The notes beneath the pieces were generated by a model. That model did no database searches. It was not told where the DNA came from and was given only the letters and a program-made list of their open reading frames with translations. From NCBI GenBank assembly GCA_024402405.1, contig JAKSTW010000006.1:1-60880 (forward strand): a stretch of 60,880 nt of DNA, written 5' to 3'. The stretch comes from Spirochaetia bacterium. Its GTDB lineage: Bacteria; Spirochaetota; Spirochaetia; CADAEX01. Shown piece after piece: positions 8,044 to 60,880 of the stretch; the stretch's first letter is position 1, and each line of letters begins with the position of its first letter. The translations under genes were made by a program, and so were the position numbers.

Positions 8044-9203
8044 GGACGCAGCCTTTCCATCACTCCCGAAACAGTGGATACAGGACTGTTGTTGTCTTTT
8101 GCCAGATCATAGGCTGTCTTGCCCTCAGGTGACTTGATGCACGGATCTGCTCCGTTGTCAAGCAGTGTTTCCACAACTCTTGAACTTTCATTGAAAAGAG
8201 CAGCCAGCATAAGAGGAGTGATTCCTCTCTTGTCCACAGCATTCACCTTGGCACCTGCATCAATAAGTGTTTTGGTATTGATGGAGTTTGTATTTGACAT
8301 AGCAGCATACATAAGGGCTGATATTCCCTCATTATCTGTCTGATTAGGATCAGCTCCCAGTTCCAGAAATTTCTCTATGACGGAAGAGCTGAAGTTGAAA
8401 GCACAGGCATACAGGAATGGGGAGAATCCCTTGTCATTCTTCTCACTGATGGAGACACCCTTGCTGTTGAGGAAGTTTATAACCTCAGGATCAGGATTGA
8501 AACATGCGGCAATGACCATAGGGGTAAATTCACCGACCTTGAAATCAACATCTCCGCCAAGCTCCACGATCTTCTTTATGACATTCACATTATGATTTGA
8601 GAGACAGGCCTGCATCAGGATGGAATGTCCCTTTCTGTTCAGCATATTCCTGTCAGCTCCCCTTTTGATAAGGGTTTCCAGAACTGCAGGATTCTCATTC
8701 TTTGATACTGCATACATAAGCGCAGTGAATCCGTCATAGTCCATATCATCTATTCTGGCACCGCCATCCACCAGCACATCAATGACCTCAGCCTTCTGGT
8801 TTCCGCCGGCAGCAGCCATAAGAGGTGTCAGACCATCATTGTTCCGGACATTGGCATCAGCACCAGCCTTTACCAGTTCTCTGAAAATATCAGCGTTTGC
8901 AGTTGTCTGTGCAGCCAGCAGCAATGCTGTATTTCCATGGATATCAGTCTCATTCACCTTAGCTCCTGCCTTGATAAGAAGCTTCACAACATCAAGAGCC
9001 TCATCATTCTGTGCAGCAATCATAAGAGGTGTGGTAGCAGAATCTCCGCTGCCCACATTCACATTGGCACCATCTTTTATAGCCTGCTCAACAGCAGCAG
9101 TATTATTCATCATGACCAGCTGGTCAAACGGTGTCTTCTCACAAAAAGCATACCCAGGAATCAACGCAATGACAAAAAGTACAGATAAAAATTTTCTACG
9201 CAT
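8040..9203 (-). CDS. Exported ankyrin-repeat protein
   Basis: A 387-residue protein with a signal peptide (MRRKFLSVLFVIALIPGYAFC) and then about ten consecutive 33-35-residue ankyrin repeats filling the rest. Typical units read NGLTPLMAAAGG, DGFTALMYAVSKNENP and GITPLMLAALFNES, each followed by the VVKLLIKAGAKVN type helix and loop. It probably sits in the periplasm or on the membrane as a protein-binding scaffold. A Cys follows the signal sequence (AFCEK), but the preceding residues are a weak lipobox. It is translationally coupled to the DtxR-type repressor, an unusual pairing. Confidence 0.88.
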   Translation of the reverse strand: MRRKFLSVLFVIALIPGYAFCEKTPFDQLVMMNNTAAVEQAIKDGANVNVGSGDSATTPLMIAAQNDEALDVVKLLIKAGAKVNETDIHGNTALLLAAQTTANADIFRELVKAGADANVRNNDGLTPLMAAAGGNQKAEVIDVLVDGGARIDDMDYDGFTALMYAVSKNENPAVLETLIKRGADRNMLNRKGHSILMQACLSNHNVNVIKKIVELGGDVDFKVGEFTPMVIAACFNPDPEVINFLNSKGVSISEKNDKGFSPFLYACAFNFSSSVIEKFLELGADPNQTDNEGISALMYAAMSNTNSINTKTLIDAGAKVNAVDKRGITPLMLAALFNESSRVVETLLDNGADPCIKSPEGKTAYDLAKDNNSPVSTVSGVMERLRP

Positions 9204-18721: not shown

Positions 18722-19465
18722 TCAGTCTTCCATCTCAAAGTCATCAGGAACATCCAGGTCTGTGGAAACATTCTGAACATCATCCAGATCTTCCAGTCTC
18801 TCAATAAGTTTGAGGACCTTTGATGTCTTTTCTTTATCCAGTGACTTCATGACTTCCGCATTTCTCTCGACTTCAGCTGAAGTCTGCTCAAAGCCAGCTT
18901 TGTTCAGAGCTTCCAGAACTGCAAGGAAATCCTCAGGAGCAGTCTTTACAACAATGTCACCATCATCTGAGCTGACATCATCAGCACCTGCATCCAGAGC
19001 AGCTGCAAAAATATCATCCTCACTGTATTTTGATCCATCAAAGCAGATGACACCCTCTTTCTTGAAAAGGTGTGATACACATCCGGTTGTACCCATGTTT
19101 CCGCCGCCTTTTGTAAGAATGCTTCTGACATCAGCAGCTGTTCTGTTTTTGTTATCGGTAAGTGTCTCAACCATCAGTGCAACTCCGCCCGGGCCATAAC
19201 CTTCGTATGTGAGTTCTACGTATTCAACACCCTCAAGTTCACCTGTACCTTTCTTGATTGCCTTGTCGATATTGTCTTTAGGCATGTTTGCTGCTTTTGC
19301 CTTGAGAATGGCTGTACGAAGTCTTGCATTTCCTTCTTCGTCACCGCCGCCCATTTTAGCAGCTACAGTAATTTCCTTGATGATCTTTGTAAAAACCTGA
19401 CCACGTTTTGCGTCAGCAGCACCTTTTTTATGCTTAATACTTGCCCATTTGCTATGACCGGACAT
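18722..19465 (-). CDS. yebC: YebC/PmpR-family protein
   Basis: A 247-residue member of the YebC/TACO1 family, recognised by [63 protein letters not shown] and [21 protein letters not shown]. Family members act as transcriptional regulators or ribosome-associated factors that ease translation of proline stretches. Ribosome site AGGAG six bases upstream. It heads the yebC-ruvCAB-queA operon; the gap before it contains the tyrS terminator and a TATAAT. Confidence 0.97.
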
Positions 19466-50526: not shown

Positions 50527-51831
50527 TCAGAAGAAATATCTGGAATTCACCTCATGGAAAATTCTGTCTGAAATTTTCTCAATATTGCTGCTGTCACTTT
50601 TGATGACCAGCTCTGCCACCTGGGCATAATTCTCATTGCGTCCCTCAAACAGTCTGTTTATGGTGTCTATCATGCTTATTCCAGGTTCCAGTCTGTAATC
50701 ATAGAGGCACCGTTTTTTCAGCAGCATCTCTGAATTTGACACCAGCCAGATCGGATATGTGAATTTTTTAAGCAGCTCACGGTTCACAGACGAAAGAACT
50801 GTATCACAGCCACAGGCAACAACAGTCTCCTGCTGCATTGCACATATGTTCTCCAGTATTCTTTCCTCCAGCCGGCTGAAAGCGTCATATCCATCCCCTT
50901 CCAGGATCTCAGGAATAGACTTGCCATACTGCTTCTCTATCTCTTCATCCAGATCCACAAACCTGCGTCCGGTACGTTCAGCCAAACTGCGGCCATAAAG
51001 CGTCTTACCGCTGCCAGAAAATCCGATGAACGAGAAAATATTTTTTCTGCAGTGTGCAGAATGCATGAAATCACGGGCCCGGTACAGAGTATCATCATCC
51101 ACCGTCTCGCCTGTGAATATGGAATAAGATGCGGCAGCCTGTTCCAATATGAAATCATCAGAAGGAATTATATTCAGATCAGCATTGCATATGATCTCAT
51201 TCGTACTGTACTGTGAATTCAGGAAAAGGACAGGTATATCACCAATGCAGCTGATGAATTTTTCCTGGAAATTACGGAAAGTATCAGCAAACACCAGAAT
51301 TTTTGCACCGCTGGTATATTTTTCCAGACTGTTGTACTCACCTGCCTGCGCTCCGCATTTCACAGCACACTCCACAGCCTCCACCAGAGTCCTGTTCAGT
51401 ATCACAACATCCCAGCCTAAGGATGTAAGACCACAGGCCACAGCCACACTGTCCTCGCTGGTACCCATTATCACAGCTCTGCCTGTATCCCTGCCGAACC
51501 TTCTCAGAATGAATTTTTTTATAGCTGTAAACTCAGTATTATATCCGGTCTTTCCGTCCGCGCTGAATGTGATGGTGTTGACAGCACAGATATTTTCGGC
51601 ATTGGCTTCCCGCCTGTCTGTGAAATCCATGGCTGATATTCTGAACGGATAAGCCATGTTGAGTCCGCTCACACCGGCCAGATTGGCAGTAACAAAAGCC
51701 TCCTCCACATCAGAAGCTGATATTCTGGTATAAATATGATCGTCATGACCAGAAAAAAGCCTGAACAGATGAGGATAATAACTTTCACCAGCCGGATTTC
51801 CGGCTACAGCAAAAATTTTTTTCGTGAGCAT
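50527..51831 (-). CDS. Shikimate dehydrogenase/shikimate kinase-like fusion, degenerate
   Basis: 434 residues. Residues 1-250 follow AroE (SGLNMAYPFR, ICAVNTI, GYNTEF, ILNRT, EQAAASYSIFTGE). Residues 263-434 follow AroK with Walker A GFSGSGKT (270-277) and VDLDEEIEKQYGKSIPEIL. Substitutions stand out: the catalytic Lys of the NxTxPxK motif is Arg64, the catalytic Asp of NTDG is Glu100, the NADP Gly-rich loop reads MGTSEDS, and the shikimate-kinase GGG motif reads CGCD. It therefore may not catalyse the usual reactions, or only at low rate. Upstream DAHP synthase suggests the shikimate route. Confidence 0.85.
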   Translation of the reverse strand: MLTKKIFAVAGNPAGESYYPHLFRLFSGHDDHIYTRISASDVEEAFVTANLAGVSGLNMAYPFRISAMDFTDRREANAENICAVNTITFSADGKTGYNTEFTAIKKFILRRFGRDTGRAVIMGTSEDSVAVACGLTSLGWDVVILNRTLVEAVECAVKCGAQAGEYNSLEKYTSGAKILVFADTFRNFQEKFISCIGDIPVLFLNSQYSTNEIICNADLNIIPSDDFILEQAAASYSIFTGETVDDDTLYRARDFMHSAHCRKNIFSFIGFSGSGKTLYGRSLAERTGRRFVDLDEEIEKQYGKSIPEILEGDGYDAFSRLEERILENICAMQQETVVACGCDTVLSSVNRELLKKFTYPIWLVSNSEMLLKKRCLYDYRLEPGISMIDTINRLFEGRNENYAQVAELVIKSDSSNIEKISDRIFHEVNSRYFF

Positions 51832-51870
51832 AAAAATATTTTATATCACTTTATGCAGATACGGCAAGTG

Positions 51871-52683
51871 TTAAATTGAGGAAAAAAATATTCTGGCCTT
51901 CTGAACCTTGGCAGACAGTGATGCAAATTCATCGGATGTCAGCTGCTGGGATCTGTCACTGAGTGCACTGGACGGATCATTATGGACTTCTATCAGCAGA
52001 CCGTCAGCACCTGCGGCCACAGCAGCCAGAGACATAGGCTCCACCAGAGAGGCCCGTCCTGTTCCATGGGACGGATCCACCACCACGGGCAGATGTGTCA
52101 GCTCTTTCAGAGCCGGAACAATGCTCAGATCCAATGTATTTCTGGTGTAAGTCTCAAAAGTGCGGATCCCGCGCTCACAGAGTATCAGCTCTTTATTTCC
52201 CTCAAGCAATATATACTCAGCACAGTTCAGATATTCCCACAGAGTGGCATACATGCTGCGTTTCAGCAGAACAGGTCTGCCGCACCTGCCAGCTTCTTTG
52301 AGAAGAGGAAAGTTCTGCATATTTCTGGCTCCGATCTGTATGATATCAGCATATCTGCACACCAGCTCCATATCACGGACGTCCACAACCTCTGTGATGA
52401 CAGGCAGTCCAGCAGTCTTTCCCGCGGCCTTCAGGATCTCCAGTCCCTCCTGCCCAAGTCCCTGAAAACTGTAAGGGGAAGTTCTGGGTTTGAAAGCACC
52501 TCCACGGAGAATATGCGCACCTGCCCTTCTGACAGCCAGAGCGACAGTCTCAGCCTGCTGATATGACTCAATGCTGCATGGTCCGGCCATAAGTACCAGG
52601 TCTCTGCCGAAGCAGGCATCTCCTACATTGATATATGTCCTGTCATTGCCTGATTTTTTCATAACCAGATTAAGATCGTCCAT
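51871..52683 (-). CDS. aroF: 3-deoxy-7-phosphoheptulonate synthase (DAHP synthase, type I-beta)
   Basis: About 270 residues from the ATG at 52683, with GAGGA upstream. [67 protein letters not shown] and [10 protein letters not shown] are all family motifs. The KRG block reads KRS. No ACT or chorismate mutase fusion. First step of the shikimate pathway. Upstream of the AroE-AroK fusion on the same strand (about 40-bp gap). Confidence 0.93.
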
Positions 52684-52699
52684 ATTTCCTCGTGCTGAT

Positions 52700-52728
52700 A
52701 ATCTAACTGATTCTGAACAATAAGTAAA
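52700..52728 (-). promoter_or_regulatory. Possible promoter of aroF
   Basis: TTTACT at 52728-52723, 17-bp spacer, TAGATT at 52705-52700; predicted start lies about ten bases before the aroF ATG. Confidence 0.4.
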
Positions 52729-52786
52729 GTGGCGGATCATCCGGCATTTTATGCAAATAAAAAAATTAAGCAGTCTTCTCTATATA

Positions 52787-56900: not shown

Positions 56901-57112
56901 CTATGGCACTGGGTATCGGTGATTCAGGTGCCGAGATGAGACAGCCTATGGGTATCGTAAGTATCGGTGGTCTGATCACATCAACAATTCTGACACTGTA
57001 CGTCATACCGGCAACACAGCTTCTTGTAGCTGGCAAGAACTCAAAAATGAAGAACCACAGCAGGGACTTTGAAGAGCTTATGGCAGCAGATAATGCAGGA
57101 GCAAACAAATGA
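53972..57112 (+). CDS. RND-family efflux permease (AcrB/MdtB-type)
   Basis: 1046 residues, twelve helices, two large periplasmic loops. Opens with NLTDISIKRPVLIIMVMVALVLFGCLAY and PAIDLPYVMVQITYPGASPTLIETQV. The C-terminal half repeats the plan (ILENFWQPVLILLTVPLAMIGI). The usual proton-relay residues are altered: helix four reads GAIVMNAVVILENIF, so Asp407-Asp408 are Met408-Asn409 here, and helix ten reads MVVNNAILILDY, with Asn930 where Lys940 is expected. The Glu of ILEN is kept. Pump is otherwise complete and in frame. Overlaps tolC by four bases. Confidence 0.93.
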   Translation: MNLTDISIKRPVLIIMVMVALVLFGCLAYTSMPLNITPAIDLPYVMVQITYPGASPTLIETQVSKKVEDAVAQISGIKEILSYSLENVSLVSLEFNIDKDPDTALLEVTSKVNNILKDLPDDAEEPIIYKVNINEQPIVQVLLVGDSAVISPAELYDLADKKVKNLFAQVDGVGQTPIYGGTEREIHVEFDNKVVTQNQISLVAVNSIIAASNLNLPAGYSQKDGQEFSVKFDGEFKTIDSLGDLEVPTGKGYKKLRDIAFVSDSHERAREGNTYFDYNNDIKYDSGVLIQIVKTSEGNAVDIQKEVEKIMEGLHEELPDGVDMFMTSETASITEDTVNDTLSNIILGIVFTSAVLLFFLHSLRSSIIIAITMPLSVLPAFIAMKASGYTLNIMSLMGISTAVGAIVMNAVVILENIFRYKEMGKPGMIAASLGTKEIVIAVMASALTNIAVFLPLGTMSGVIGKFLMEFAISVVFTTVFSLFIAFTLTPMMAAYILPEKDDKKHPIGDRLENMFHKWENSYKNVLVKILRTKKRCLLIVVISFAAFLFSMYLFRFIPMEFMPAMDEDEISLEIELAKGTDLSETEKFVDMLEERLSTHSDLIVHGSASIGRLSQQETGVNMAKIYLNVIPKAKRKYNTVQLAGMITKELADIPGATIRVASASKVDLTQSPVDFYIKGPDMERLVMYSDEIMPKIQQIPGVMNLKSSNASGVPEITLYPDLKKISDAGITVQEIAMTMRTALEGVSMSEYNDNGEQYDIKVFLVDKTISSYEDIANISIATPAGILPMSHFANIVYTQGFGKILRSDREKVIEFTSDVAYGYATSDLTDQITEIINQLDFPFGYKYQLAGNSEDMVTTIKEMIFIFFIAIVLTYMLLAAILENFWQPVLILLTVPLAMIGIVAIFLICRTTMNFVGMMAIVMLVGMVVNNAILILDYTNQLRNDGLSMHDALIEACPTKLKAILMSNIATILGLLPMALGIGDSGAEMRQPMGIVSIGGLITSTILTLYVIPATQLLVAGKNSKMKNHSRDFEELMAADNAGANK

Positions 57113-58437
57113 AAAAACTTACAGTATTATTTCTGATTACAGCATTTTGTCTGATAATGACATCACCTGCCTTTGCAGCAGATTATTCGCTGGAAGATTA
57201 TCTGGCGCTGGTGCAGCAGAACAACAAGGATCTGCTGATCGCAGCAGCCAATCTCAAGCAGGCAACTGAGACAGAGAAACTGGCACGCTCACAGGCACTG
57301 CCTACCATCGGATTCTCAGCCAGTCTGAACAAGAACTTTCTGGAGGTCGAACAGACTACCCCTGTTGAGTCAAAGCCAGGCGGAGGAGCACTCATCTACA
57401 AGGATGTGGTGGTGAACACAGATTATGATTTCAGCTTCGGTCTGGGACTGTCACAGCAGCTGTTCAACATCAATGTGCTCAATGCCATCAGAGCCAGCAA
57501 GGAATACAGGAATATGTCACAGTCTGTATATGATGCCCAGAATGATGCCATCATAACTGCTGCCAAAAAGGTATTCTTCCAGTGTTTCCTTCTGGAAAAA
57601 TTCTACGACATAAAGAAGCAGACTGAAGACAGGGCTTATGACCACTATATGCTGATGAAGAAAAAATATGAGACAGGAGTGGTCTCAAAACTGGCATTCC
57701 TCAATTCCGAGGTGGACTGGAAAATGGCAGTTCCTGAGACAACCAATGCCAGAATGAATCTGGAGCTGTGTCTCATCAATCTGAAGAATCTGGCTGGAAT
57801 CGCACAGGAAGAGGAAGTGAATCTGACAGGAGATATGTCAGTATTCCCTGATATGCCTGAAAATGTGGAACTGGAGCAGGTCATGGAGTCAAGACCTGAC
57901 TATCTGGCTCTCATGAAGGAAAAATCTCTCAGAGAACTGAATATCAAGGCTAATATGGCCAATCACTTCCCTACACTGTCATTGGATGCCAGCTATGGTT
58001 ATTCTGCCGCTGATGACAAATTCTCAAAGACTTTCAACGAGAATGACAAGCAGGTGTGCAAAGTCGGTCTGACACTGTCACTGCCAGTTTACACAGGCGG
58101 AGCTTTATCAGCTCAGGACAGAACAGTAAAATTGGATGCAGAGACTACAGAGCTGAAGATCAGAAAGAAGAGAGAGGACATTATGTCTGAACTCAGAAAA
58201 ATATATCTGTCACTTCAGAGGGAATTTGAGAACATCGCCCTGGCTGAAACAACAATGACAACAGCACACCAGGCTTATGACATTGCTGAGACAGCATTTG
58301 ACAATGGCGTTATGACACAGCTTGAACTGAAGGATGTGCGTGTGAATCTGGAATCAGCAGAATTACAGCAGATCTCCTCAGTCTATAACTATCTGTGCGC
58401 TTACTTCGACTGGCAGAAAGCTACCGGAAACATGTAA
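57109..58437 (+). CDS. TolC-like outer-membrane efflux protein (RND operon)
   Basis: 442 residues with signal peptide MKKLTVLFLITAFCLIMTSPAFA and the duplicated TolC pattern: YSLEDYLALVQQNNKDLLIAAANLKQATETEKLARSQALP, FGLGLSQQLFN, YETGVVSKLAFLNSEVD, then VCKVGLTLSLPVYTGGALSAQD. Different from the TolC of the ABC cluster. ATGA overlap with the permease. Last gene before a strong terminator. Confidence 0.94.
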   Translation: MKKLTVLFLITAFCLIMTSPAFAADYSLEDYLALVQQNNKDLLIAAANLKQATETEKLARSQALPTIGFSASLNKNFLEVEQTTPVESKPGGGALIYKDVVVNTDYDFSFGLGLSQQLFNINVLNAIRASKEYRNMSQSVYDAQNDAIITAAKKVFFQCFLLEKFYDIKKQTEDRAYDHYMLMKKKYETGVVSKLAFLNSEVDWKMAVPETTNARMNLELCLINLKNLAGIAQEEEVNLTGDMSVFPDMPENVELEQVMESRPDYLALMKEKSLRELNIKANMANHFPTLSLDASYGYSAADDKFSKTFNENDKQVCKVGLTLSLPVYTGGALSAQDRTVKLDAETTELKIRKKREDIMSELRKIYLSLQREFENIALAETTMTTAHQAYDIAETAFDNGVMTQLELKDVRVNLESAELQQISSVYNYLCAYFDWQKATGNM

Positions 58438-58479
58438 GCCAAATAAACACAGAGCAGTCTGAAACTGCTGAATCTACAG

Positions 58480-58515
58480 ACACCGCTATAAATTTATTAT
58501 GGCGGTGTTTTTTTA
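58480..58515 (+). terminator. Terminator of the RND operon
   Basis: 12-bp stem ACACCGCTATAA/TTATGGCGGTGT (one GT pair), loop ATTTA, then seven T. It also marks the end of the chromosomal-type sequence before the accessory region. Confidence 0.96.
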
Positions 58516-58566
58516 TCCTAATATCATAAAGCCATCATTGAAAAGTTGTTAATTATAATACTAAAA

Positions 58567-58682: not shown

Positions 58683-59094
58683 CTGATCAAGAATAATCTG
58701 CTCAATGATCTCGTTGTGAATCTGATGAGAGCTGAAGCCGTCTTTTATTTCCGGTAGATGGAGCAGACTATGTATTCCTTCTGCTGAAGGTTTCTGGCCC
58801 GGACTATTCTGTAAGTATCACAGATATGGTATGGGACTGGTGCAACAATAACATGCATCCATACAATATTGAAATTCTCTGTCAGATGGCAGAAGAAGAT
58901 TACAAAAACTACTACTTAAGCGGAGAGATTGTCGGCTATGGTATCTTTATGTCAGTGATCTTGTAAATGATATTTGCAAACTTGGCTCAACCTTTGAATA
59001 CTATGATGTTCTTCAGAAGGTACGCTATGAATATAATGTAGCGCTTCCGATTGATGATGACCTTGATCATATGGGCTCTGTGCTACTTGCATAG
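58683..59094 (+). pseudogene. Frameshifted coding remnant of unknown family
   Basis: Three frames in turn give a protein-like reading: LIKNNLLNDLVVNLMRAEAVFYF, then (after a shift near 58755) DGADYVFLLLKVSGPDYSVSITDMVWDWCNNNMHPYNIEILCQ, then (after a shift near 58955) LVNDICKLGSTFEYYDVLQKVRYEYNVALPIDDD ending at TAG 59092-59094. At least two frameshifts and no ribosome site, so a dead gene. Its style resembles small hypothetical proteins on mobile regions of gut Firmicutes, but I cannot name a family. Confidence 0.55.
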
Positions 59095-59257: not shown

Positions 59258-59273
59258 TCGATATTAATATCGA
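59258..59273. promoter_or_regulatory. Palindromic operator overlapping the methyltransferase -35
   Basis: TCGATATTAATATCGA is a perfect 16-base palindrome. Its last four bases are part of the -35 box, so a bound dimer would block RNA polymerase. The likely ligand is a regulator with an HTH, possibly the methyltransferase itself, which carries HTH segments. Confidence 0.6.
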
Positions 59274-59298
59274 CATTATTCGCAAACTCGCATATAAT
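59270..59298 (+). promoter_or_regulatory. Promoter of the DNA methyltransferase gene
   Basis: TCGACA at 59270-59275 (five of six matches to TTGACA), 17-bp spacer, perfect TATAAT at 59293-59298. Predicted start near 59305 gives a 20-base leader holding AGGAGG. Confidence 0.82.
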
Positions 59299-59324
59299 AA
59301 ATATTATGCAAGGAGGGCTTGGCT

Positions 59325-60880
59325 ATGCAATTACAATCCGTAAAAGAGACTGCAGAGCGCTTTAACATATCAGAGAGAAGAGTCCAAAAACTTTGCGAAG
59401 CAGGAAGGATTGAAGGCGCACAGATGATAAGCAATGTGTGGCTTATTCCAATTTCTGCAGAGAAGCCGAACGATGAACGTTTTTCTGCTGAGTTTCAAGA
59501 TATGTTATCTCTTTCTGATGCTTGCTCAGAATTATCTATATCCATTGCAACTGGACGCAACTGGGTAAAACTTGGAAAACTAATTCCTTCGGACATCGTC
59601 AAGCGCACACCTTACTTTGCGAAAGACTATATATCTAAAATAAAAGAAGAAATTGCTAACGGGGAAAACAAAGCGCTAAAAAGTAGAAGAAATAAGAAGT
59701 TCATATCTGGTAGCAACGTTTACAATTCGTATGTCTCAGATGACTCGGTAAATATTGCTACAATTCAGAAAGTTCTCGATATAATAGAACAAAATGCAAT
59801 AACGATTGATGAAAGTATCATAATTTCATTAGTTTACAATTGTGCCGCTCAACTTGTACGATCAAAATATAACGGCGATAGCAACTGCGGTCGGTTTAGT
59901 TTCTTGCTCGATGATCTTATTTCTCTAAATCCCTCTGGATTTGCTTTTATACAGAACTATCCAGAATTTGCAGATATTACTTATGAATATGAACATGGTG
60001 AGGACATCCTTGGTCTATTGTATATATCACTTAAAAATATCGGAAACAGAAAAGCTACCGGCTCCTATTATACTCCTACTGCTGTAGTTAAAAAATTAAA
60101 TGGTAGTTTATTCTTGGGCGAGGATATCGCTAAATCAACCGTTTTAGATCCCTGTTGTGGAACTGGTAATTTCATTTTACAGCTTCCGGATGTTTTTGAT
60201 TATTCAAATGTTTATGGGAATGATATTGATTCAATAAGCATCAAAATTGCACGTATCAACTATGCGCTAAAATATAACATAGCTGATAAAAGCATTATTT
60301 TCTCTCATATTACTGAAAGCGATTACCTTTCATACTCAACTGAAAAAAAGTATGATTATATTATTGGAAATCCTCCATGGGGATACAACTACACAGAAGA
60401 TGAAAAAGTGTCTCTTCGCAAACGTTTTAAGAGTGCTATAGGGAGCAGTATTGAATCGTTCGATGTATTTGTTGAGCAAGCGTTATCAAACCTTCACCAG
60501 AACGGCGTTCTTTCTTTTGTGTTGCCAGAAGCGTTTTTAAATGTCAAAGCTCATATGCCTATACGTCAACTGTTAATAAACAGCAATTCTATCCAGTACA
60601 TTGAATTTATTGGAAATGCTTTTGATAAAGTTCAATGTCCATGTATTATTTTGCAAGTTGAACATACCAATCATCCGTTATCTACCGTTGGGCTAAAAAT
60701 AAATGATGGGAATCGAATCTTCACAATTAATACTGAACGAATTGTATCTTCAGATTGTTTCTCCTTTATGATAAGCGATAACGAATATTCCATTATTAAC
60801 AAAATCGAAAATGTCAAAAACAAAGTCACATTAAAAGACAAGGCAGCCTTTGCTTTGGGAATTGTTACAGGAAATAATAA
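59325..60880 (+). CDS. N6-adenine DNA methyltransferase with two N-terminal HTH segments (3' end outside window)
   Basis: At least 518 residues, open to the right edge. AGGAGG is eight bases before the ATG. Residues 1-45 (LQSVKETAERFNISERRVQKLCEAGRIEGAQMI) form an excisionase/MerR-like HTH, and residues 62-105 (LSLSDACSELSISIATGRNWVKLGKLI) a second, weaker one. The methyltransferase core follows: motif X KATGSYYTP (243-251), SAM motif I LDPCCGTGNF (from 274) and catalytic motif IV NPPWG (349-353). Order X-I-IV is that of Eco57I/TaqI-like N6-adenine enzymes, mostly of restriction-modification systems. AT-rich third positions (TTA, CGT, ATT) differ from the rest of the window, so it is foreign. 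Specificity and any partner nuclease lie beyond the edge. Confidence 0.92.
   Translation, partial: MQLQSVKETAERFNISERRVQKLCEAGRIEGAQMISNVWLIPISAEKPNDERFSAEFQDMLSLSDACSELSISIATGRNWVKLGKLIPSDIVKRTPYFAKDYISKIKEEIANGENKALKSRRNKKFISGSNVYNSYVSDDSVNIATIQKVLDIIEQNAITIDESIIISLVYNCAAQLVRSKYNGDSNCGRFSFLLDDLISLNPSGFAFIQNYPEFADITYEYEHGEDILGLLYISLKNIGNRKATGSYYTPTAVVKKLNGSLFLGEDIAKSTVLDPCCGTGNFILQLPDVFDYSNVYGNDIDSISIKIARINYALKYNIADKSIIFSHITESDYLSYSTEKKYDYIIGNPPWGYNYTEDEKVSLRKRFKSAIGSSIESFDVFVEQALSNLHQNGVLSFVLPEAFLNVKAHMPIRQLLINSNSIQYIEFIGNAFDKVQCPCIILQVEHTNHPLSTVGLKINDGNRIFTINTERIVSSDCFSFMISDNEYSIINKIENVKNKVTLKDKAAFALGIVTGNN

What the first reader, a model, noticed from the sequence alone, without database searches (positions are those of the whole stretch)
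59258..60880. Acquired N6-adenine methyltransferase with its own HTH segments and operator
The gene at 59325 joins two N-terminal HTH-like segments to a TaqI/Eco57I-type methyltransferase (motifs KATGSYYTP, DPCCGTG, NPPWG). Restriction-modification genes often need a separate controller protein; here a DNA-binding front end is fused to the enzyme, and a perfect palindrome lies on its promoter. This suggests an enzyme that represses its own gene, or whose HTH part steers it. Codon use differs from all the genes before it, and it is preceded by gene debris, so this is the left edge of an imported island.
Basis: partly seen in the sequence, partly recalled or inferred. Interest (0 to 1): 0.75.

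Follow-up and report, generated by a model that had tools for sequence, protein, structure and literature searches.

The report
Imported restriction-modification cassette, split by assembly
The half-gene at the end of this contig is the protective DNA methyltransferase of a recently imported Type II restriction-modification system; its two nuclease genes and a separate controller gene lie on the next contig, so it is largely ordinary, but it combines two nuclease families that elsewhere occur singly and gives the methyltransferase an extra DNA-binding front end.

Summary
At 59325 an N6-adenine methyltransferase (M) with two N-terminal helix-turn-helix segments runs off the contig, behind a perfect palindrome that overlaps its -35 box. 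The gene continues on contig C36 of the same genome (27-bp overlap, same frame; M = 708 aa). Beyond it lie, tail to tail with M, two PD-(D/E)XK nuclease genes, R1 (186 aa) and R2 (248 aa), behind a C.BclI/C.AhdI-like controller gene with tandem C-box-like operators. It is an insertion: all six congeners searched have tolC directly beside the shikimate cluster, the cassette is AT-rich, and a 20-bp direct repeat found only twice in the genome bounds 4,656 bp. HTH2 is common in one branch of this methyltransferase family; HTH1 is unique to this protein among those compared, as is the palindrome. Self-repression by M is plausible (known for M.EcoRII and M.Ecl18kI) but untested. Relatives carry either an R1-type or an R2-type nuclease with M; none examined carries both. 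Verdict: a new variant of a known kind.

The parts
58478..58510 (+). intrinsic terminator of the upstream tolC-like gene (57109-58437); its 3' half belongs to the left repeat
   Evidence: 14-pair stem with T-tail
58500..58519 (+). left copy of the 20-bp direct repeat TGGCGGTGTTTTTTTATCCT that bounds the insertion; right copy at contig C36 7877-7896 (minus strand)
   Evidence: only two places in the genome at up to 2 mismatches; 4656 bp between the copies
58736..59091 (+). gene debris: two pieces of one reading frame, out of frame with each other; identity unknown
   Evidence: no Pfam hit; weak hit to a 668-aa frame in one distant genome, E 5e-4
59258..59273 (.). perfect 16-bp palindrome TCGATATTAATATCGA, candidate operator of the M gene
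   Evidence: absent upstream of 15 other M homologues
59270..59298 (+). sigma-70-like promoter of M: TCGACA, 17 bp, TATAAT; the -35 overlaps the palindrome
   Evidence: 11 of 12 consensus positions, best site in the region
59311..59316 (+). ribosome-binding site AGGAGG, 8 bp before the ATG
   Evidence: sequence
59325..60880 (+). 5' part (aa 1-518) of the 708-aa N6-adenine methyltransferase M; the rest is on contig C36 10226-9621 (minus strand)
   Evidence: PADLOC MTase_II PDLC03348, E 2.6e-142 for the joined protein
59337..59456 (+). HTH1 of M (aa 5-44), the extra DNA-binding segment of this protein
   Evidence: Pfam HTH_17 E 1.4e-8; no counterpart in the homologues compared
59502..59699 (+). 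HTH2 of M (aa ~60-125), conserved in one branch of the methyltransferase family, ending in an SRxNKK-like motif
60027..60674 (+). catalytic methyltransferase core (aa 235-450): SAM motif DPCCGTG, catalytic NPPWG

Best explanation
It is a complete Type II restriction-modification cassette, inserted as a ~4.7-kb block into the tolC terminator of a bacterium whose congeners lack it, and cut in two by the assembly. M (708 aa) methylates adenine in the recognition site. The convergent operon C-R2-R1 makes a controller protein and two related PD-(D/E)XK nuclease chains that cleave unmethylated DNA, most likely as a two-subunit enzyme. On entry into a new cell M is made at once from its near-consensus promoter, while C must first accumulate and bind its tandem boxes before the nuclease operon is switched on, so protection precedes restriction. 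As M accumulates, its HTH front end (HTH1 in particular) probably binds the palindrome over its own -35 and holds M down. Shown by sequence: gene content, domains, motifs, operator-like repeats, insertion. Inferred: delayed restriction, heterodimerisation (about 0.55), M autorepression (about 0.45).
For: Join of the contigs: unique 27-bp overlap and continued frame; the joined protein matches PDLC03348 to its C-terminus; six congeners have tolC followed directly by the aro cluster that lies on C36. Partners: R2 = REase_II PDLC03414 E 2e-34, R1 same model E 1.4e-7, C = Control_protein PDLC03665 E 3.2e-23; C is closest in the PDB to C.BclI (6e-16), with C.AhdI at 5e-12. R1 and R2 both keep the invariant positions of the family, including D...EVK and QQ-KP. 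Relatives pair this M with an R1-type or an R2-type nuclease next door. Tandem 15-bp boxes TACACTTATTGTATG/TAGACTTTTTGTATG at C36 8037-8066, the second starting at the -35 of C. Insertion. Palindrome over the -35 of M. MTase-repressor fusions of this logic are known (PMC12707154, PMC3874152).
Against: The first 8 bases of C36 differ from the window end at two positions, so the join is not proven base by base. Binding of anything to the palindrome is untested, and HTH1 occurs only once, so there is no comparative support for an HTH1-palindrome pairing. The structure models are too poor to judge the HTH folds (mean pLDDT 48 and 46). Only one methyltransferase lies in the cassette, whereas BtsI, a two-subunit enzyme with an asymmetric site, has two. 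No activity data.
Confidence: 0.88

Rival explanations
1. Same cassette, but the palindrome is the operator of the C protein, which represses M as C proteins do in some systems; the HTHs of M serve target recognition, not gene control.
For: C proteins repress the M promoter in some systems (PMC12707154). HTH2 is found in many homologues, including the orphan and systems without a palindrome, so HTHs here need not be regulators.
Against: The C-box sequence (TANACTTNTTGTATG) has no good match at the M promoter: best 12/15, and not at the palindrome.
Confidence: 0.2
2. The palindrome acts through methylation: it or its flanks hold the recognition site of M (TCGA occurs twice, ATCGAT once), and methylation of the promoter tunes M expression as in CfrBI or LlaDII.
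For: Methylation of a site in the M promoter regulates some systems (PMC3874152). The best PDB hit of M is M.BseCI, which I recall as an ATCGAT enzyme.
Against: The recognition sequence of M is unknown; similarity to M.BseCI is confined to the catalytic core (aa 238-442), not the specificity domain.
Confidence: 0.15
3. Solitary regulatory methyltransferase with no partners; the contig join is false.
For: An orphan paralogue with no nuclease beside it exists in this genome.
Against: Overlap, frame continuity, model coverage and six-genome synteny all support the join.
Confidence: 0.03
4. R1 and R2 are two independent nucleases of the same or different specificity rather than subunits of one enzyme.
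For: R1-type and R2-type nucleases each occur alone next to an M homologue and form two separate, fully supported clades.
Against: R2 and R1 overlap by 4 bp in one operon behind one C gene, and only one M is present to protect against both.
Confidence: 0.4

Closest known systems
C-protein-controlled Type II R-M systems (PvuII, BclI, AhdI)
   Same: separate M; C gene upstream of the nuclease gene(s) in one operon; tandem operator-like boxes, the second overlapping the -35 of C
   Different: two nuclease genes; M itself carries two HTH segments and its own promoter palindrome
MTase-repressor fusions (M.EcoRII, M.SsoII, M.Ecl18kI, M.MspI)
   Same: N-terminal HTH on the methyltransferase and an operator-like sequence overlapping its own promoter
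   Different: N6-adenine enzyme with a TaqI-type C-terminal specificity domain rather than (from my own knowledge) a cytosine-5 enzyme; HTH_17/MerR-like segments; a separate C gene is also present; repression not shown
Two-subunit restriction enzymes (BbvCI Type IIT; BtsI/BsrDI Type IIS)
   Same: two adjacent nuclease chains, both with an intact D...ExK motif (as in BbvCI); one chain smaller (as BtsIA is the smaller subunit of BtsI)
   Different: no sequence match to any PDB chain; one M in the cassette, while BtsI has two; heterodimer not shown
PADLOC MTase_II PDLC03348 + REase_II PDLC03414 systems of the same phylum
   Same: same M and R2 families, M next to R
   Different: those have one nuclease gene and no HTH1; no R1 in those examined
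R-M insertion with long target duplication (Nobusato et al. 2000, cited in PMC3874152)
   Same: R-M block bounded by a direct repeat, empty site in relatives, no recombinase gene in the block
   Different: repeat only 20 bp; the duplicated target is a transcription terminator

Membership tests
Type II restriction-modification system | separate methyltransferase and nuclease genes side by side | tested here: met
Type II restriction-modification system | nuclease with PD-(D/E)XK-type catalytic motif | tested here: met
   D119, E128-V-K130 of R2 invariant, also in R1
[quoted passage not shown]
   needs methylome and cleavage assay
R-M controller (C) protein | small Cro/C1-type HTH protein related to known C proteins | tested here: met
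   HTH_3 E 1.6e-15; Control_protein; C.BclI, C.AhdI
R-M controller (C) protein | gene directly upstream of R, with tandem C boxes at its own promoter | tested here: met
   as sequence only
MTase-repressor fusion | N-terminal HTH fused to the methyltransferase | tested here: met
MTase-repressor fusion | operator overlapping the M promoter, bound by M | tested here: inconclusive
   palindrome over the -35 present; binding not testable here
Two-subunit (heterodimeric) restriction enzyme | two homologous nuclease chains, each with a catalytic site | tested here: met
Two-subunit (heterodimeric) restriction enzyme | both chains needed for double-strand cleavage | not testable with these tools
   biochemistry needed; R1-type and R2-type also occur singly
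Two-subunit enzyme with asymmetric site | two methyltransferases, one per strand (as in BtsI) | tested here: not met
   one M in the cassette; a 42% paralogue lies elsewhere on C2
BREX or DISARM | PglX/PglZ/BrxL or DrmA/B/C neighbours | tested here: not met
   NCBIfam BREX PglX matches far below cut-off; no such genes on C36 next to M
Insertion with target duplication | direct repeat at both ends and an empty site in relatives | tested here: met

The most novel reading that the evidence does not exclude
A restriction-modification system with two independent brakes, a C protein on the nuclease operon and an autorepressing HTH-fused N6-adenine methyltransferase, and with a nuclease assembled from two anciently separate families (R1-type and R2-type) that elsewhere each work alone with the same kind of methyltransferase.
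Probability: 0.25. Interest if true: 0.6.

Novelty: new variant of a known kind. Interest (0 to 1): 0.4.

Why it matters
In the literature read here, C-protein control and MTase-repressor control are described as separate solutions to the problem of making methylation precede restriction (PMC3874152, PMC12707154). A cassette whose anatomy has both would let one ask whether they cooperate. The nuclease pair is a natural test of how two-subunit restriction enzymes arise: here not by recent duplication but by bringing together two families that each also occur singly beside the same kind of methyltransferase. It also shows that an apparent orphan methyltransferase at a contig end should be checked against contig joins before a new regulatory idea is built on it.

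Tried and rejected
R2 has no plasmid relative; R1 has one, in a B. licheniformis phage-like plasmid. R1 and R2 have no PDB relative. HTH1+HTH2 against the PDB gave only chance hits. Both AlphaFold models were poor, so no fold search was run. I first took R1/R2 for a recent gene duplication; the tree rejects this, R1 and R2 falling into separate, fully supported clades. I considered the Acetobacter plasmid locus as a whole R-M cassette because two genes of similar size precede M there; their sequences are unrelated to R1/R2. Codon-distance statistics alone were not trusted because native aroEK also deviates. Protein 2 was a stray sequence entered by mistake and means nothing. Orphan and BREX/DISARM readings rejected (see membership test).

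Full report
What is in the window. The window is the whole contig C50 of a 1.52-Mb, 53-contig genome. At 59325 an ATG with a good ribosome-binding site opens a frame that runs off the contig end. The 518 encoded residues hold a Pfam HTH_17 segment at aa 5-44 (35.3 bits, cut-off 27) and an N6_Mtase/Eco57I methyltransferase core. The palindrome TCGATATTAATATCGA is exact, is expected in under 1% of shuffled versions of the intergenic stretch, and occurs nowhere else in the genome within two mismatches. It overlaps the -35 hexamer of the best promoter-like site, TCGACA-17-TATAAT.

The gene continues on another contig. The last 27 bases of the window recur once at the end of contig C36 (10,226 bp, minus strand), and the reading frame continues through the overlap to give a 708-aa protein. 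The first 8 bases of C36 hold two mismatches, as contig ends sometimes do. The join is supported independently: the joined protein matches the PADLOC Type II methyltransferase model to position 711 of 727, and in all six congeners the tolC-like gene at 57109-58437 is directly followed by aroQ-aroEK-aroC-aroA-aroB, which in this genome lie on C36 beyond the cassette.

The partners. Convergent with M and overlapping its stop by 4 bp lie R1 (C36 9064-9624, 186 aa), R2 (8321-9067, 248 aa) and C (8102-8317, 71 aa), transcribed in the order C-R2-R1. Pfam and NCBIfam do not know R1 or R2, but PADLOC assigns both to the same Type II nuclease model (R2 E 2e-34, R1 E 1.4e-7) and C to the controller family (E 3.2e-23); the closest solved structure to C is C.BclI, with C.AhdI third. 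An alignment of nine members shows 20 invariant positions, including D and E-V-K of the PD-(D/E)XK motif, kept in both R1 and R2; R1 lacks about 75 N-terminal residues. Upstream of C, a 15-bp box occurs twice head to tail (TACACTTATTGTATG, TAGACTTTTTGTATG; 13 of 15 equal; P about 0.004), the second copy starting at the -35 hexamer. This is the layout described for C proteins that activate from an upstream site and repress from one overlapping the promoter (PMC12707154). The M promoter has no such box (best 12/15 and not at the palindrome).

The island. Congeners lack M and R2. The cassette genes have GC3 0.30-0.34 against 0.36-0.55 for 44 window genes. The 20-mer TGGCGGTGTTTTTTTATCCT, the 3' half of the tolC terminator, occurs twice in the genome at up to two mismatches, at 58500-58519 and at C36 7877-7896, with 4,656 bp between. 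This looks like an insertion with target duplication, a mode proposed for R-M genes (Nobusato et al. 2000, as cited in PMC3874152). The alkyltransferase-like gene and the GNAT gene beyond the right repeat have native-like GC3 (0.46 and 0.50) and seem to be a separate matter. The debris at 58736-59091 lies inside the repeats and stays unidentified.

The helix-turn-helix segments. In an alignment of 17 homologues every member compared carries HTH2, including the orphan paralogue of this genome, and none but the window protein carries HTH1. In a wider set a second branch of the family has no HTH at the same place. HTH2 is therefore part of the enzyme in one branch, perhaps for target binding, and HTH1 is an addition. 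Of 16 M homologues whose upstream 200 bp were scanned, only the window's has a perfect 16-bp palindrome. The co-occurrence of extra HTH and palindrome is suggestive, but it is one case. Methyltransferases that repress their own gene by an N-terminal HTH bound to an operator over the promoter are known (M.EcoRII, M.SsoII, M.Ecl18kI; PMC12707154 and PMC3874152). Structure prediction did not help.

What is unusual. Seven genomes of the phylum have an M homologue next to a single R2-type nuclease, one of them with a broken nuclease gene; viral contigs L088, L089/L103 and L117 have M next to a single R1-type nuclease, and G030 has M next to an R1 fragment. The two nuclease types form separate clades with full support, and the window's R1 and R2 fall one in each. 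The window M groups with the R1-type systems L088 and L089 and with the orphan (99/97 support). So this looks like an R1-type system that has gained C and R2. The specificity domain is better conserved than the catalytic core (64% against 45% with L088, 51% against 45% with the orphan), which suggests, without proving it, that these enzymes share a recognition sequence and that R1 and R2 could act on one site.

Verdict. The central idea, that a fused front end replaces a controller, is not: a controller is there. What remains open is whether M also represses itself and whether R1 and R2 form one enzyme. New variant of a known kind, interest 0.4.

Noticed in passing
window 50527-52740: A second aroE-aroK fusion (about 25% identical to the congeners' aroEK) sits beside a DAHP synthase; in six congeners the DAHP synthase lies between aroB and thrS, here aroB abuts thrS on C36, so the gene has moved.
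   Followed up: partly
L021 6738-8672 (G000 contig C2 36782-38551): Orphan paralogue of M (42% identity, HTH2 but no HTH1) beside feoB with no nuclease; could protect against, or predate, the imported cassette.
   Followed up: partly
L003 7068-7860 (contig C36): An alkyltransferase-like (MGMT-type) gene, absent from all six congeners, and a GNAT gene lie between the right repeat and aroQ.
   Followed up: no
L034 5336-5785 and L121 1546-1743: Decayed nuclease genes (stop codons inside) beside an M homologue: restriction lost, methyltransferase kept.
   Followed up: no
L102 5995-6552 (NZ_CP154900.1) and L105-L116: R1-type nuclease genes in phage-like contigs with no M of this family nearby, including a Bacillus licheniformis plasmid with phage genes.
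   Followed up: no
L039 4999-6827: An R2-type nuclease paired with a DPPY-type N4/N6 methyltransferase instead of the TaqI-type one: partner exchange.
   Followed up: no
window 18869-18884: The only other perfect 16-bp palindrome of the window, GACTTCAGCTGAAGTC.
   Followed up: no
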